Positions 1-41,647 of a stretch of DNA of 41,767 bases are shown in pieces. This stretch comes from an uncultured Bacteroidota bacterium. GTDB lineage: Bacteria; Bacteroidota; Bacteroidia; AKYH767-A; JABDAW01. The notes below the pieces were generated by a model. It made no database searches. It was given only the letters and a program-made list of their open reading frames with translations, and was not told where the DNA came from. The DNA lies in NCBI GenBank assembly GCA_903911135.1, contig CAIWCG010000211.1:1-41767 (forward strand), in the 5' to 3' direction. Numbering within the stretch: position 1 is the stretch's first letter; each line of letters starts with the position of its first letter. A program made the position numbers and the translations under genes.

Positions 1-120
1 ATGCATTTCTCTTCCGACTTGATGCATTTCTCTTCCGACTTGATGCATTTCTCTCTCGACTTGATGCATTTCTCTCTCGACTTGATGCATTTCTTCTCCT
101 ACTTGATGCATTTCTCTTAC
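1..120. repeat. Tandem array, 21-bp unit, about 5.7 copies
   Basis: Five full units start at 1, 22, 43, 64 and 85, each beginning ATGCATTTCT, followed by a partial unit from 106. Copies differ by a few substitutions near the 3' end (TTCCGACTTG, CTCGACTTG, TCCTACTTG). The array is cut by the window edge, so its true length is unknown. The reading frame through it is open only because 21 is a multiple of three; the heptad-like peptide it would give has no start signal or homology I recognise. It lies upstream of element A at 241. Confidence 0.95.
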
Positions 121-187
121 GAAACAACTCGTTGTAGCTTTAAAACTACTCTTTGTTGCAAATATGGTATGCTTAGGCTTGGGAAAA

Positions 188-222
188 GCTACGGCGAAAA
201 GGCAAAGCCTTTTCGCCGTAGC
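188..222. repeat. Perfect 16-bp inverted repeat (hairpin) with 3-base loop
   Basis: The left arm at 188-203 (GCTACGGCGAAAAGGC) is exactly complementary to 207-222, with loop AAA. It lies between the 21-bp array and element A. No T-run follows, so it is not a typical intrinsic terminator. A near-identical left arm (GCTGCGGCGAAAAG) occupies the last 14 bases of the window, so this is probably a dispersed repeat. Confidence 0.9.
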
Positions 223-240
223 CAGGTTATGTATAAAAAG

Positions 241-375
241 TCGTTTCGAAGCTACCTGCCATAGCTAATAGCCCCGATAGTAGCGGCAGCCCGCTGCTTT
301 GTGTCGGTAGTGGGGATGCAGCGGCTACAGCGGATAGCGGGACGCACCTTGATACGAGTGGAAACCGTAGGCTCC
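241..375 (+). repeat. Dispersed intergenic element, subfamily A, copy 1 (candidate structured RNA)
   Basis: The core TAGCCCCGATAGTAGCGG through AGCGGATAGCGGGACG is nearly identical to copies at 20354 and 29778; most core differences fall at 298-317. A plausible fold pairs CCCG (273-276) with CGGG (338-341), GTAG (280-283) with CTAC (325-328), and CCGCTGC (291-297) with GCAGCGG (318-324). The 5' flank (TTTCGAAGCTACCTGCC) and 3' end (ATACGAG...TAGGCTCC) are shared with subfamily B. An AT-rich direct repeat (AATTATAAATTATAAATT) follows at 388-405, as it does near copy 3. No open frame is conserved. Whether it is transcribed is unknown. Confidence 0.8.
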
Positions 376-463
376 TTATTGGAATTAGGAATTATAAATT
401 ATAAATTAGGAATTAGGAGTGGGATAAAGTAGGATGACATGGGTATTTGGGGCTGGTAACGAG

Positions 464-3181: not shown

Positions 3182-3260
3182 ATGTTTACATAAACTTTTC
3201 AAATGTTTACATAAACTTTTTGGATATTTACATAAACTTTTCAAATGTTTATGCATTCTT
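3182..3260. repeat. Tandem array, 21-bp unit, 3 copies plus partial
   Basis: Units start at 3182, 3203 and 3224, each close to ATGTTTACATAAACTTTTC, with a broken fourth from 3245 and a decayed copy before 3182. The array sits between the convergent DUF3089 and lpxB genes and precedes element B at 3327. The spacer 2982-3529 holds nothing else I can support. Confidence 0.9.
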
Positions 3261-3326
3261 AGTTGGTTGATGGTGGTAAGGGGGTGGTGAATGGTGGGTT
3301 TTGCCTACCACACCTATGACTGTTGA

Positions 3327-3464
3327 TTCGAAGTATGTGCCATGGAGCATAGCCCTGACATGCCCAAGATTATCCTCTTGTGCGTTGGCATTTTTGGGGG
3401 GTATGGAAGAGATAACTGGTGGCTGGCAGGACAGGTTATGATACGAGAACCGGGCGTAGGCTCC
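3327..3464 (+). repeat. Dispersed intergenic element, subfamily B, copy 1 (candidate structured RNA)
   Basis: The element shares CATAGCCCTGACATGCCCA and GATAACTG...GGCTGGCAGGAC with the copy at 25819, and both with the minus-strand copy at 41205. Its ends (TTCGAAG..., and ATACGAGAA...TAGGCTCC) match subfamily A. A helix TTAT-C-CTCTT (3370-3379) pairs with AAGAG-ATAA (3407-3415). TGCCA (3339-3343) can pair with TGGCA (3424-3428). It carries no conserved open frame. Confidence 0.75.
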
Positions 3465-3529
3465 TGATTGGAATTATTATTGATGAACAGGTAACGATAA
3501 CTGCTGATGATGGTGAGGAGGATGGTTGA

Positions 3530-6852: not shown

Positions 6853-7131
6853 AAACTGTAAATGTCATCCCGCAGCCTTGCGGGTGCCATCGTTAAAAAT
6901 AATTATGCCATGGCGGACACCCGCGAAGACATCCTCAAAAATAATTATGGCATGGCGGACATCCGCGATTCCATCGTTAAAAATAATTATGACGTGGCGG
7001 ACACCCGCGATGACATCCTCAAAAATAATTATGGCATGGCGGACTCCCGCGATGACATCGTTAAAAATAATTATGGCGTGGCGGACACCCGCGATGGCAT
7101 CCTTAAAAACAATTATGGCGTGGCGGAACCA
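6853..7131. repeat. Tandem array, 42-bp unit, about 6 copies
   Basis: The landmark AAAAATAATTATG (AAAAACAATTATG in the last copy) recurs at 6895, 6937, 6979, 7021, 7063 and 7105, exactly 42 bases apart. Each unit also holds GGCGGACACCCGCGA or a close variant, a small hairpin (GCGG/CCGC). A half-unit with its own hairpin (CCCGCA/TGCGGG) precedes the first copy. The array lies in the 584-base spacer between the desaturase start and the terminator of the cargo operon. No A or B element is present here, and nothing recognisable lies at 7132-7281. Confidence 0.95.
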
Positions 7132-13105: not shown

Positions 13106-13240
13106 CATCCTATTCTTATGATAGCTCGCCAAACGCGAAGCAATTATAAGAACATCAATAAATAAAAAGTGCCTTTTTAATCAATTAAATGATGATTAAT
13201 GATAACAATCATGTTTTGAAGGCATTCTCAAATTGATGAA

Positions 13241-13482
13241 AGAGGCAAAAACTTGTACGGACGCAAGTTCTGCTCGGCATAAGCATCCATATACATGTAT
13301 GGACACTATTTTTCCTCGGCGATAGCATCCATACACCTGTATGGTCACCATATCCGCACGGAACTTGCGTCCATACACCTGTACGGACACCATATCCGCA
13401 CGGAACATTCATCCATACATGTGTACGGACACTATTTCTGCACGGAACATGCGTCCATACACGTGTATGGACGCATGTTCCG
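13241..13482. repeat. Tandem array, 42-bp unit, five copies, ending in a perfect 40-base palindrome
   Basis: The landmark G(C/T)(A/G)TCCATA recurs at 13283, 13325, 13367, 13409 and 13451, always 42 bases apart, with a half-unit before the first. Each unit contains a palindromic centre such as ATACATGTAT or ACACGTGT. In the last unit the symmetry extends to 40 bases: 13443-13462 is the exact reverse complement of 13463-13482. The array occupies most of the 515-base spacer between two plus-strand cargo genes. There is no A or B element. Confidence 0.95.
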
Positions 13483-19862: not shown

Positions 19863-20071
19863 ATGTATCAGGCTGACTTTCATTCAGTCTGATACTGTTT
19901 ACACCCACTCAATTTTTTATAAAGTCGATTAGTTTTGGCTTGGCTGTTGACTAAGACCTCTGTTTATGGCTTTAGAACTTCTATGTTTTTTTTCAAATCT
20001 TTTCTCTTTTTAAAGAATCTCAAGCTAAAAATGGCTCGTTGCTGCAATAAATATATACTTTTAGGGCGCAA

Positions 20072-20281
20072 GGCACCTTGCAGACCAATCGGAATATAGT
20101 TATCGGTCTGCCAGGCACCTTGCTGACCAATGGGAATATAGTTATTGCTCTGCCGAGCACCTTGCAGACCAATCGGAATATAGTTATTGGTCTGCCAAGC
20201 ACCTTGCAGACCAATCGGAATATAGTTATTGGTCTGCCAGGCACCTCGCAGACCAATCGGAATATATATATTGCTCTGCCG
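20072..20281. repeat. Tandem array, 42-bp unit, 5 copies
   Basis: Units start at 20072, 20114, 20156, 20198 and 20240 and are each close to GGCACCTTGCAGACCAATCG followed by GAATATAGTTAT and a GTCTGCC block. Differences are single bases. A decayed flank (GGACATATTTGG) follows. It lies in the spacer 19863-20659 after nuoL, 72 bases before element A copy 2. The first 200 bases of the spacer (19863-20071) are AT-rich with no gene. Confidence 0.97.
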
Positions 20282-20353
20282 GACATATTTGGTTGAACAT
20301 TACCAAAATTTTGAGCTTTGGCAATTTTCAATGATTTACTTGCTAAAAGCCAA

Positions 20354-20482
20354 TTCGAGTTACCTGCCGTCAAATCTAGCCCCGATAGTAGCGGCAGCCC
20401 GCTGCCTTGTGTCGGTAATGGGGATGCAGCGGCTACAGCGGATAGCGGGACGTAGATGATACGAGAAGATGCCATAGGCTTC
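20354..20482 (+). repeat. Dispersed intergenic element, subfamily A, copy 2
   Basis: The core CTAGCCCCGATAGTAGCGG through GCGGATAGCGGGACGTAG matches copies 1 and 3 almost base for base; changes are confined to the predicted loop (CTTGTGTCGGTAATGGGGAT) and the flanks. The 5' end carries TACCTGCC and the 3' end ATACGAGAAG...TAGGCTTC, the ends shared by A and B. It lies 3' of the 42-bp array in the same orientation as the other plus-strand copies. Confidence 0.8.
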
Positions 20483-20605
20483 AAAAAATGAATGTCAAGA
20501 TGGTTATTGTCATTAAAATTTGTTTGAGCCAACCAAAATTTCCTGCAACCGTCTATGATTTTACAACGATGAAATAGTGTGATTTTAAGAAATTATTGGA
20601 AAATA

Positions 20606-25483: not shown

Positions 25484-25714
25484 GGTCATCGCTAAGGTCA
25501 TTATCGTGACGATAATAACCTTTATTGCGACGATTATAACCTTTATCGTGACGATTATAACCTTTATCGTGACGATTATAACCTTTATCGTGACGGCTAA
25601 GGGCAATATGGTGAACGCTAAGGGTATTATCACGGCGACATTGACCAATATCATGACAGCATTGACCTTTATTGTGGCATCTATAACCTTTATCATGGCT
25701 GCAAAGGGCTTTAT
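25484..25714. repeat. Tandem array, 21-bp unit, 11 copies in two sequence variants
   Basis: Units start at 25484 and then every 21 bases up to 25694. Four central copies resemble CGTGACGATTATAACCTTTA. Others are of a second type (such as CGTGACGGCTAAGGGCAATA), mixed at both ends. All keep the ending (T/A)TAT and the 21-base register without a single slip. The array lies between the convergent giant cargo gene and dnaK and precedes element B copy 2. Confidence 0.95.
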
Positions 25715-25818
25715 TTTGGAAGGTTTTGATTTTCAATTCCGTAATTTGGGTTTCAAGGTTATCCGTGTTTTCAATTTTAATGCGGATCATCTTTTATACA
25801 TTTTCTGATGAAAGCCAT

Positions 25819-25957
25819 TTCGAAGTAGCTGCCATCAATCATAGCCCTGACATGCCCAAGGTTATCCTCTTGTGCGGAGGCATTCTTGGGGGGTATGGAA
25901 GAGATAACTGATGGCTGGCAGGACGTGCATGGAACGAGAAGAAAACATAGGCTCCAA
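25819..25957 (+). repeat. Dispersed intergenic element, subfamily B, copy 2
   Basis: It is nearly the same as copy 1 across CATAGCCCTGACATGCCCAA and GGGGGGTATGGAAGAGATAA. TTAT-C-CTCTT (25862-25871) pairs with AAGAG-ATAA (25899-25907); CTGCCA (25829-25834) can pair with TGGCAG (25917-25922). It ends ACGAGAAGAAAACATAGGCTCC in two conserved blocks (ACGAGAAG and TAGGCTCC), just before the dnaK terminator. Confidence 0.78.
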
Positions 25958-25969
25958 AAAAAGAAATGC

Positions 25970-29258: not shown

Positions 29259-29420
29259 GGGGGCGCCCCCTTTCAGCAGCCAAGGGAGAAAAGGCTGCTG
29301 AAAGGGGTCGGGGTGTTGCGTGGGTTCGCTACGCTCCGTTTTTGCCGCCACCAACAAACGCAAGATAAAGGCGGCAAAGAACCGCCTATCGGCGCCACTA
29401 CACTCCCTCGCCCGAGGCTA
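29259..29420. other. GC-rich segment with several stable hairpins, unexplained
   Basis: The segment contains the palindrome GGGGGCGCCCCC (29259-29270). Overlapping it, CCCCTTTCAGCAGCC (29267-29281) is the perfect complement of 29293-29307, so the two structures compete for the same bases. A third pair is TTTGCCGCC (29341-29349) with GGCGGCAAA (29370-29378). Base composition is clearly richer in G+C than the surroundings. No open frame with recognisable coding content runs through it. It fills the spacer between the lipoprotein gene and the array at 29545; 29421-29544 shows nothing. Confidence 0.7.
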
Positions 29421-29544
29421 CGAATAAACTTTACAGCAAACTTTTCAGATGCGACTCGCTAAAATGGTCAAAATCTATCTCCGAAATTTAACTTCAGCAG
29501 ATGAAAACAGGCTAATTGATTGTTTATCAATGTTTTCATATAAT

Positions 29545-29770
29545 TATTGGAACGATTCTACCTATCGGTAGCAAGCCGCTACCGATAGGTAGCAGGTCGC
29601 TACCGATAGGTAGCAGGTCGCTGCCGATAGGTAGCAAGTCGCTACCGATAGGTAGCAAGTCGCTACCGGTAGGTAGCAAGTCGCTACCGATAGGTAGCAG
29701 GTCGCTACCGATAGGTAGCAAGTCGCTGCCGATAGGTAGAATTGAAGTTTTGATGGGAATTGTTCCAATA
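29545..29770. repeat. Tandem array of 21-bp hairpin units, 8 copies plus partial, inside an inverted repeat
   Basis: Units start at 29559 and then every 21 bases to 29706, with a partial at 29727. Nearly every unit is itself a hairpin, GCTACC-GATA-GGTAGC, separated by AAGTC or AGGTC. The whole array is bracketed by TATTGGAAC (29545-29553) and its reverse complement GTTCCAATA (29762-29770), and by ATTCTACC (29555-29562) with GGTAGAAT (29735-29742). On the right the two inverted blocks are separated by about 19 extra bases flanked by GAATT. Element A copy 3 starts 8 bases further on. Confidence 0.95.
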
Positions 29771-29777
29771 AAAAGAT

Positions 29778-29912
29778 GTTTCGAAGCTACCTGCCGTCGA
29801 AGCATAGCCCCGATAGTAGCGGCAGCCCGCTGCTTTGTTTCGGTAATGATGATGCAGCGGCTACAGCGGATAGCGGGACGCAGATGGGACGAGAAGAGGA
29901 CGTAGGCTCCAA
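29778..29912 (+). repeat. Dispersed intergenic element, subfamily A, copy 3
   Basis: TTTCGAAGCTACCTGCC at the 5' end, the invariant core ATAGCCCCGATAGTAGCGG to GCGGATAGCGGGACGCAG, and the 3' end ACGAGAAG...TAGGCTCC are all present. The predicted loop reads TTTGTTTCGGTAATGATGAT, differing from copy 1 at four bases while both stems stay intact. AT-rich direct repeats (AATTATAAATTATAAAT) follow at 29932-29948. The spacer to the mutY stop at 29987 shows nothing else. Confidence 0.82.
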
Positions 29913-29986
29913 ATAGAAATTATAAATGTTGAATTATAAATTATAAATCGGGAAGGTGGAATGTGGGCATTTCGGTCGAAAACGGA

Positions 29987-36032: not shown

Positions 36033-36116
36033 TTGAGTCTGATTTATTCTTGGATGATCATTAAAGAATAAAACGGTTTTGAACGGGTAAGATTATTCCT
36101 TACTTATTATTCATGA

Positions 36117-36242
36117 AATAGTACATGGATAAGGCAAAATAGTACATGGATAAGGCAAAATAGTACACGGAAAAAGCCAAATAGTACACGGAAAAGCCGA
36201 AATGTTACACGGAAAAGGCAAAATGTTACACGGATTTTTGCA
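36117..36242. repeat. Tandem array, 21-bp unit, 6 copies
   Basis: Units start at 36117, 36138, 36159, 36180, 36201 and 36222, each resembling AATAGTACATGGATAAGGC. Change is progressive: the first two copies read GTACATGGAT, the next two GTACACGGAA, the last two GTTACACGGA. This fits stepwise duplication with divergence. The array lies between the convergent GH3 gene and the unknown gene at 36318. No A or B element follows. Confidence 0.96.
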
Positions 36243-37660: not shown

Positions 37661-37742
37661 GCGGATGTGTCGTAATTGGTAGCCGAGCCAGACTTAGGAT
37701 CTGGTGCCGTAAGGCGTGGGGGTTCGAGTCCCTTCATCCGCA
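37661..37742 (+). tRNA. tRNA-Leu (anticodon UAG)
   Basis: The acceptor stem GCGGATG (37661-37667) pairs with CATCCGC (37735-37741), with discriminator A at 37742. The anticodon stem CCAGA/TCTGG encloses CTTAGGA, giving anticodon TAG, which reads CUA and, by wobble, other CUN leucine codons. A long variable arm (TGCCGTAAGGCGT) marks a class II tRNA, as expected for Leu. The T arm is GGGGG-TTCGAGT-CCCTT with two G-U pairs. The 3' CCA is not encoded. Confidence 0.97.
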
Positions 37743-41142: not shown

Positions 41143-41204
41143 AACCACCTTCCTTTTTTTGCTATCAAGCAAACAATTCAAACTAAAATACATCTTTTTT
41201 TTAA

Positions 41205-41345
41205 GGAGCCTATGTTCACTTCTCGTATCACGGTGCTACCTGCCAGCTATCGATTATCTGCCGCCAAAGGCAAGGGCCTTCGTAATGGCAGGATAAGCTG
41301 GGCATGTCAGGGCTATGACCGATGGCAGCTTCTTCGAAACAGCTT
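41205..41345 (-). repeat. Dispersed intergenic element, subfamily B, copy 3 (inverted)
   Basis: Read on the minus strand it shows TTTCGAAGAAGCTGCCATC, CATAGCCCTGACATGCCCA, then GCTGGCAGG, ATACGAGAAG and TAGGCTCC. Its internal helix TTAT-C-CTGCC / GGCAG-ATAA (plus strand 41287-41296 and 41254-41262) replaces CTCTT/AAGAG of the other two copies by paired changes. The apical part is different and contains its own small inverted repeat (AAGGC/GCCTT). The tandem array lies on its minus-strand 5' side. Confidence 0.78.
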
Positions 41346-41363
41346 TTGGCAGGTAGCTAAACA

Positions 41364-41499: not shown

Positions 41500-41647
41500 C
41501 GTGTACAGGTTCATGATGGTCGTGTACACGGCCATACAAACCTGAATACACGACCATACTATCCGTGTACAGGTTGATGCTGGTCGTGTACAAGTTGATA
41601 TTGGCCGTGTACAAGTTCATAATGGTGGTGTACATGTCCATACAAAA
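41500..41647. repeat. Tandem array, 21-bp unit, about 7 copies with an internal inversion
   Basis: Direct units start at 41500, 41564, 41585, 41606 and 41627, each beginning CGTGTACA or GGTGTACA. The stretch 41521-41563 (43 bases) departs from this. It opens with the palindrome CGTGTACACG and holds GAATACACGACCATA, which matches the units on the opposite strand, so about two units are inverted. The array lies on the minus-strand 5' side of element B copy 3. The remaining 120 bases show nothing except the first 14 bases of a hairpin arm like that at 188. Confidence 0.9.

What the first reader, a model, noticed from the sequence alone, without database searches (positions are those of the whole stretch)
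25484..25957. A composite intergenic element: a 21/42-bp array always followed on the same side by an A or B module (six of six)
Six A/B modules occur in the window (241, 3327, 20354, 25819, 29778 plus strand; 41205 minus strand). Each has a tandem array on its own 5' side, about 36-155 bases away: 1-120, 3182-3260, 20072-20281, 25484-25714, 29559-29741, and 41500-41647 for the inverted one. The array sequences are unrelated between loci, while the modules are conserved. A constant order with a variable array suggests one functional or mobile unit and not chance neighbours. Three further arrays (6853, 13241, 36117) have no module. I know of no named element with this architecture.
Basis: partly seen in the sequence, partly recalled or inferred. 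Interest (0 to 1): 0.8.

Follow-up and report, generated by a model that had tools for sequence, protein, structure and literature searches.

The report
Tandem arrays capped by Flavo-1 hairpins
Between the genes of some uncultured Bacteroidota lie hundreds of short DNA arrays, each repeating its own 21-letter unit, and an orphan hairpin motif called Flavo-1 sits beside them always pointing away from the array; this one-way rule recurs in a second, unrelated family and suggests a single, probably mobile, kind of element whose function is unknown.

Summary
Module A contains Rfam Flavo-1 (RF01705), an orphan candidate RNA; the genome has at least 149 copies. In about 10% of this genome, nearly every tandem array has a period that is a multiple of 21 bp, about one array per 5 kb, mostly intergenic. 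Of 75 modules readable on both sides, 59 have an array within 260 bp on the 5' side and none on the 3' side. The rule is two-sided: modules A, B and a third family C cap array ends and point outward (45 outward, 0 inward; 13 of 70 arrays capped at both ends). It also holds in Flavo-1 of another family (G269: 9 of 14 copies with a 5' array, one short tail repeat 3') and, less strictly, for a different module in a sister species (17 versus 5). It is not universal: 38 of 70 arrays have no known cap, and most other genomes with Flavo-1 lack arrays. 'Unrelated arrays' needs correcting: 14 of 70 have a relative, and some whole composites are paralogous. Best reading: a non-autonomous, MITE-like composite, a minisatellite capped by hairpin modules, closest to P. 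gingivalis BrickBuilt. Mobility, transposase and transcription are not shown.

The parts
25501..25595 (.). focal 21-bp array, unit TTATCGTGACGATTATAACCT (dyad TTATCGTGACGATAA); degenerate copies extend over about 25484-25714
   Evidence: TRF; paralogous to L047:10413-10582
25809..25964 (+). focal B module: 5' TTTCGAAGTAGCTGCC, structured core, 3' GGAACGAGAAGAAAACATAGGCTCC
   Evidence: nhmmer; consensus structure with both-sided changes at 7 of 26 pairs
1..122 (.). 21-bp array ATGCATTTCTCTTCCGACTTG, cut by the contig start
   Evidence: TRF
234..384 (+). A module; Flavo-1 core 266-348
   Evidence: Rfam RF01705, 52.9 bits against gathering 42
381..418 (+). 3' tail of 7-bp repeats (GGAATTA, 5.4 copies)
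   Evidence: TRF; lag-7 peak over A tails
3182..3251 (.). 21-bp array ATGTTTACATAAACTTTTCAA
   Evidence: TRF
3326..3474 (+). B module
   Evidence: nhmmer
20071..20280 (.). 42-bp array with internal dyad GCAGACCAAT...ATTGGTCTGC
   Evidence: TRF
20343..20489 (+). A module; Flavo-1 core 20374-20456
   Evidence: Rfam RF01705, 53.8 bits
29243..29424 (-). C module (GGGCGAGGGAG...CCCCGACC...GGGGGCGCCCC), capping the left end of the 29558 array and pointing outward
   Evidence: repeat cluster; C profile
29558..29739 (.). 21-bp array CTACCGATAGGTAGCAAGTCG
   Evidence: TRF; whole composite 29336-29944 is paralogous to L035:2061-1452, 71% over 615 bp
29770..29919 (+). A module; Flavo-1 core 29802-29884; 7-bp tail 29917-29948
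   Evidence: Rfam RF01705, 53.3 bits; TRF
41196..41348 (-). B module, minus strand
   Evidence: nhmmer
41564..41642 (.). 21-bp array CGTGTACAAGTTGATAATGGT, 5' of the minus-strand B module
   Evidence: TRF
6885..7127 (.). 42/84-bp array without a known cap
   Evidence: TRF
13328..13472 (.). 42-bp array without a known cap; a short hairpin repeat lies at 13113-13147
   Evidence: TRF
36116..36234 (.). 21-bp array without a known cap
   Evidence: TRF

Best explanation
These are dispersed, non-coding composite elements of MITE-like type. The core is a minisatellite whose unit is two DNA helical turns (21 bp) or a multiple of it, often with an internal dyad. One or both ends carry a structured hairpin module of about 150-230 bp (A, which contains Flavo-1; B; C; in the sister species a different one), in this genome always with its 5' end toward the array, so capped arrays read [<-cap][array][cap->]. 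Some caps carry a 3' tail of 7-bp repeats. Shown here: anatomy, polarity, period lock, intergenic placement, multicopy state, and duplication of a few whole composites. Inferred: that modules are spread in trans by an unidentified host or mobile-element enzyme acting on the hairpins, and that each array is homogenised in place by slippage or unequal exchange, so that its sequence drifts between loci while its length unit is kept.
For: 59 of 75 modules have an array within 260 bp 5' and 0 have one 3'. Caps around arrays: 45 outward, 0 inward, 13 of 70 arrays capped at both ends, across three module families. 128 of 133 TRF rows in 373 kb have a period that is a multiple of 21, and 63 of 70 arrays are intergenic by rough ORF calling although 81.5% of bases are coding. 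Unit dyads: 22 of 58 units with at least 7 self-complementary pairs, 3.65 expected by shuffling. Whole composites duplicated: L033:1027-1462 and L035:8928-8454 (main HSP 89%), window 29336-29944 and L035:2061-1452 (71% over 615 bp). Gene strand 3' of the module is random (31 same, 30 opposite, median gap 77 bp), which argues against a cis-regulatory leader. Replication: G269, family f23, 9 of 14 Flavo-1 copies with a 5' array within 500 bp against 1 on the 3' side, a short ACTAAAT-derived repeat; sister species G002, 34 copies of its own module, arrays 17 on the 5' and 5 on the 3' side of 26.
Against: No transposase, target-site duplication or precise empty site was shown. The one Y1-transposase locus of G000 is broken by stops, and reverse transcriptases do not track arrays. 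Short inverted repeats outside the caps are only weakly enriched, and direct repeats of similar length are as common. 38 of 70 arrays have no known cap.
Confidence: 0.45

Rival explanations
1. Arrays come first and are targets: they arise on their own, and Flavo-1-type modules are independent mobile hairpins that land at array edges in one orientation. There is then no single mobile composite.
For: Arrays are equally dense in G002, which has no Flavo-1 match; 38 of 70 arrays lack caps; paired caps are no more alike than random; caps of different families share one array.
Against: Whole composites including flanks are duplicated; in other lineages with few arrays, the arrays found near Flavo-1 are mainly on its 5' side.
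Confidence: 0.28
2. The module seeds the array: its 5' junction is where 21-bp duplication of neighbouring DNA starts, so arrays grow on that side from local sequence.
For: Private unit sequences at most loci; constant period; strict polarity; recurrence of 21/42-bp arrays 5' of Flavo-1 in G017 and G269.
Against: Many arrays have no module; the gap between module and array varies from 1 to over 200 bp; most Flavo-1 copies in other genomes have no array (99 sites in 75 genomes).
Confidence: 0.12
3. The composite makes RNA: transcripts start in the array and run outward through a Flavo-1-type structured RNA, as divergent non-coding RNA units.
For: Flavo-1 was proposed as a structured RNA (PMC2864571); B shows both-sided changes at 7 of 26 pairs; outward polarity fits two divergent units; BrickBuilt segments drive transcription in both directions in E. 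coli (PMC4596501).
Against: No expression data; no promoter test done; the RNAalifold covariation term for B is near zero; private array sequences make a shared promoter unlikely.
Confidence: 0.1
4. Assembly artefact or chance neighbours.
For: Draft MAGs; many contigs end inside these repeats (positions).
Against: The pattern recurs with unique flanks across many contigs and in independent assemblies (L071, L072; G002; G269); 59 to 0 polarity.
Confidence: 0.02

Closest known systems
BrickBuilt MITE of Porphyromonas gingivalis (Klein et al. 2015, PMC4596501)
   Same: Bacteroidota; intergenic; minisatellite core (23 bp) with flanking segments of which one, both or neither may be present (11 both, 5 one, 3 neither of 19); no coding capacity; no transposase inside
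   Different: BrickBuilt units share one sequence; here most units are private. Its leader and tail are two different segments with short inverted ends; here the caps are hairpin modules of a few families in outward orientation. No sequence comparison with BrickBuilt was run here.
Flavo-1 RNA (RF01705; Weinberg et al. 2010, PMC2864571)
   Same: Module A contains the Flavo-1 core above the Rfam gathering score
   Different: The main text of that paper lists it only in a table as a candidate RNA of Bacteroidetes, and no paper found here links it to tandem arrays. B and C of the window, and anything in G002, are not found by the Rfam model at gathering score.
REP/BIME repeats and their RAYT transposases
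   Same: Short intergenic palindromic repeats in high copy; inverted pairs
   Different: No intact Y1 transposase in G000; modules are larger; arrays have no counterpart in REP systems as I know them
CRISPR arrays
   Same: Direct repeats with a flanking structured element
   Different: Repeats abut without spacers; cas genes were not searched for
Heptad direct repeats (TAACTGA, Beggiatoaceae; PMC4679880)
   Same: Intergenic 7-bp direct repeats resemble the 3' tails
   Different: Different sequences and lineages; only the tail is comparable

Membership tests
Flavo-1 (RF01705) | A modules match the Rfam model above the gathering score | tested here: met
   Three A modules in the window; 149 matches in the genome
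Flavo-1 (RF01705) | B and C modules match the same model | tested here: not met
   Window scan found only the three A cores; B shares ends with A, and C shares, by eye only, a CCCGACC/outer-stem signature with extended Flavo-1 forms
MITE | Short, multicopy, non-coding, intergenic | tested here: met
MITE | Terminal inverted repeats | tested here: inconclusive
   Inverted caps at both ends in 13 of 70 arrays, but the two caps are no more alike than random and may be of different families
MITE | Target-site duplication | tested here: inconclusive
   Ends inspected; no consistent duplication seen, variable tails blur the ends, no formal test
MITE | Parent transposase with matching ends | not tested
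   Only Y1 (PF01797) and RVT_1 (PF00078) were sought; other transposase families were not
BrickBuilt | Shared repeat unit across loci | tested here: not met
   Only 14 of 70 arrays have a relative in the sample
REP/RAYT | Intact Y1 RAYT transposase in the genome | tested here: not met
   G000 has one locus with stops inside; G251, with many Flavo-1 copies, has none
CRISPR array | Unique spacers between repeats | tested here: not met
   Units abut head to tail

The most novel reading that the evidence does not exclude
A previously undescribed class of bacterial element in which Flavo-1-superfamily hairpins direct, or are recruited to, tandem arrays locked to a two-helical-turn (21-bp) period, through a dedicated enzyme that acts with fixed polarity and is shared by unrelated Bacteroidota families.
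Probability: 0.2. Interest if true: 0.85.

Novelty: new variant of a known kind. Interest (0 to 1): 0.62.

Why it matters
Flavo-1 has been an orphan candidate RNA since 2010. Its strict placement beside period-locked arrays, in two families at least, makes its nature testable: mobile hairpin, RNA gene, or array-forming element. A genome with about one 21-bp array per 5 kb of private sequence also asks what sets the period, since ordinary slippage gives many periods. The repeats also sit at many contig ends of this MAG, so they matter for assembly.

Tried and rejected
Y1/RAYT link: no intact gene in G000 and no correlation with copy number. Reverse transcriptase: absent in G002, G008 and G269. 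Inverted repeats immediately flanking arrays, outside caps: weak excess at 10 bp or more, but direct repeats of similar length are as frequent. Cis-regulation of the neighbouring gene: strand random. Caps as a TIR pair that moves together: not supported. A universal link of Flavo-1 to arrays: rejected; over 99 sites in 75 genomes long arrays (score 80 or more) were found 5' at 6 and 3' at 5, the 3' ones being simple tails, a coding repeat or one borderline repeat. Literature searches for a named element with this architecture found only BrickBuilt.

Full report
WHAT IS THERE. The window is contig C211 of a 3.80-Mb, 296-contig genome. The nearest named records, found with the RNase G protein, are MAGs called 'Bacteroidetes bacterium' (83% protein identity for the nearest two). 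All six modules and nine arrays of the finding were confirmed. Module A contains Rfam Flavo-1. B is not found by that model but shares both ends with A and has a consensus fold in which 7 of 26 pairs show a both-sided change, although the RNAalifold covariation term is near zero.

PERIOD LOCK. I sampled 373 kb of this genome: the window plus 20 stretches chosen on contigs known to carry Flavo-1, so module density there is biased upward. Of 133 TRF rows with score 60 or more, 128 have a period that is a multiple of 21; about 70 separate arrays lie about 5.3 kb apart. The sister species G002, sampled without regard to modules, has the same: 102 of 115 rows are multiples of 21. Two further relatives also carry them (L071, L072); they may be the same species as G001 or G002. 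Other genomes of the order have few or none. By rough ORF calling 63 of 70 arrays are intergenic; the focal array falls in a repeat-driven open frame, for which I have no other evidence of coding. Units are enriched for dyads: 22 of 58 with at least 7 self-complementary pairs against 3.65 expected, and 16 of 53 against about 4 in G002.

POLARITY. Over 75 A, B and C modules with at least 300 bp known on both sides, an array lies within 260 bp 5' in 59 and 3' in 0 (63 and 0 at 500 bp); a random position has one on a given side in 4.7% of cases. Stretches and match-centred loci overlap in part; exact repeats were removed by sequence, but a few duplicates cut by locus ends may remain. The smaller, non-overlapping sample gave 31 and 0 of 42 at 200 bp.

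TWO-SIDED ARCHITECTURE. Masking arrays and A/B modules showed a third dispersed repeat, C, at array ends. With A, B and C together, caps within 260 bp of arrays point outward in 45 cases and inward in none; 13 of 70 arrays have caps at both ends, 19 at one, 38 at none. The array at window 29558 is capped by C on the left and A on the right.

SISTER SPECIES. G002 has no Flavo-1 match but 34 copies of its own structured module, found because it clusters at array edges. Arrays lie within 250 bp on its 5' side in 17 of 26 and on its 3' side in 5, so the rule holds there less strictly. By eye this module and C share, with longer Flavo-1 forms of other genomes, an outer stem, a first hairpin, a CCCGACC stretch and a second hairpin; this homology was not tested with a model.

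OTHER FAMILIES. Flavo-1 is present in 107 of 296 class genomes, in some in more than 50 copies. In most it has no array: 99 sites in 75 genomes gave long arrays 5' at 6 and 3' at 5, the latter simple tails, a coding repeat or one borderline repeat. In G269, of another family, 9 of 14 copies have a tandem array within 500 bp 5', mostly of period 21, 42 or 22; one copy has a short repeat 3', an ACTAAAT-derived tail. In its congener G161 arrays are mostly farther off, and of ten sites one has an array within 500 bp 5' and one 3'. Single cases with 5' arrays are G008 (period 50), G017 (21/42) and G060 (41). The G269, G161, G060, G322 and G194 sites were chosen after a first 5' array had been seen in some of those genomes, so their totals are not an unbiased rate; the 5'/3' contrast within G269 is the useful part.

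ARRAYS ARE NOT ALL UNRELATED. In this tenth of the genome 14 of 70 arrays have a relative. Two pairs are whole composites: L033:1027-1462 with L035:8928-8454 (main HSP 89%), and window 29336-29944 with L035:2061-1452 (71% over 615 bp, array part 64%, A part 78%). The second pair is not closer in its A module than random A pairs (mean 84%), so it is old. One array of G002 sits between two genes that are adjacent in G000 (L063:3160-3620 against L031:5480-5680), which shows gain or loss of an array without a cap.

TAILS. The 3' side of A and of the G002 module shows a peak of self-similarity at lag 7 (0.386 and 0.38 against about 0.30 and 0.28 shuffled); B and C do not show it in this sample.

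MECHANISM. The gene 3' of a module lies on the same strand in 31 and the opposite in 30 cases, at a median of 77 bp, which argues against a leader or terminator of that gene. Copy number, species-specific module families and duplicated composites fit a non-autonomous mobile element; absence of a partner enzyme, of target duplications and of closer similarity between paired caps keep this at about 0.45. The alternative that arrays are targets for mobile caps is not far behind.

KNOWN THINGS. BrickBuilt is the nearest published architecture. Flavo-1 appears in only four papers of the library by accession and once in the text of its discovery paper, as a table entry. No paper found links it to tandem arrays; most subscription papers are not held, so priority cannot be judged firmly.

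Noticed in passing
G000 contig ends, e.g. C100:44-126, C2:11-93, C134:3-85: Many contigs start or end in or near a Flavo-1 copy, so these repeats probably cause much of the fragmentation of this MAG.
   Followed up: no
L142:4639-5190 (G161): Flavo-1 itself lies in a tandem repeat of about 224 bp (2.4 copies).
   Followed up: no
L063:3160-3620 against L031:5480-5680: A 21-bp array without a cap lies between two G002 genes that are directly adjacent in G000; short inverted repeat TGATGGAA/TTCCATCA near its ends.
   Followed up: partly
window 20071-20280 against L056:10473-10706: Both species have a 42-bp array just downstream of the same proton-antiporter gene, with unrelated unit sequences.
   Followed up: partly
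window 188-225 and seven similar sites: A strong palindrome (GGCGAAAAGGC, short loop, GCCTTTTCGCC) is dispersed in the genome, usually within 10 bp of a module.
   Followed up: no
L031:6481-6540, L035:8926-8980, L041:14305-14364, window 13113-13147: Another short hairpin repeat (ATGATGGCTCGC...GCGAAGCTATTAT) near arrays, some of which have no A/B/C cap.
   Followed up: no
L110 (G010): Several 7-bp tandem repeats of different sequence (TTCAACC, TCCGGTT, AACCCGA), with no run of 21-bp arrays like that of G000.
   Followed up: no
G000:C203:27321-27678: Remnant of a Y1 transposase gene with several stops, the only one found in the genome.
   Followed up: partly
window 37661-37742: An ordinary tRNA gene.
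   Followed up: no
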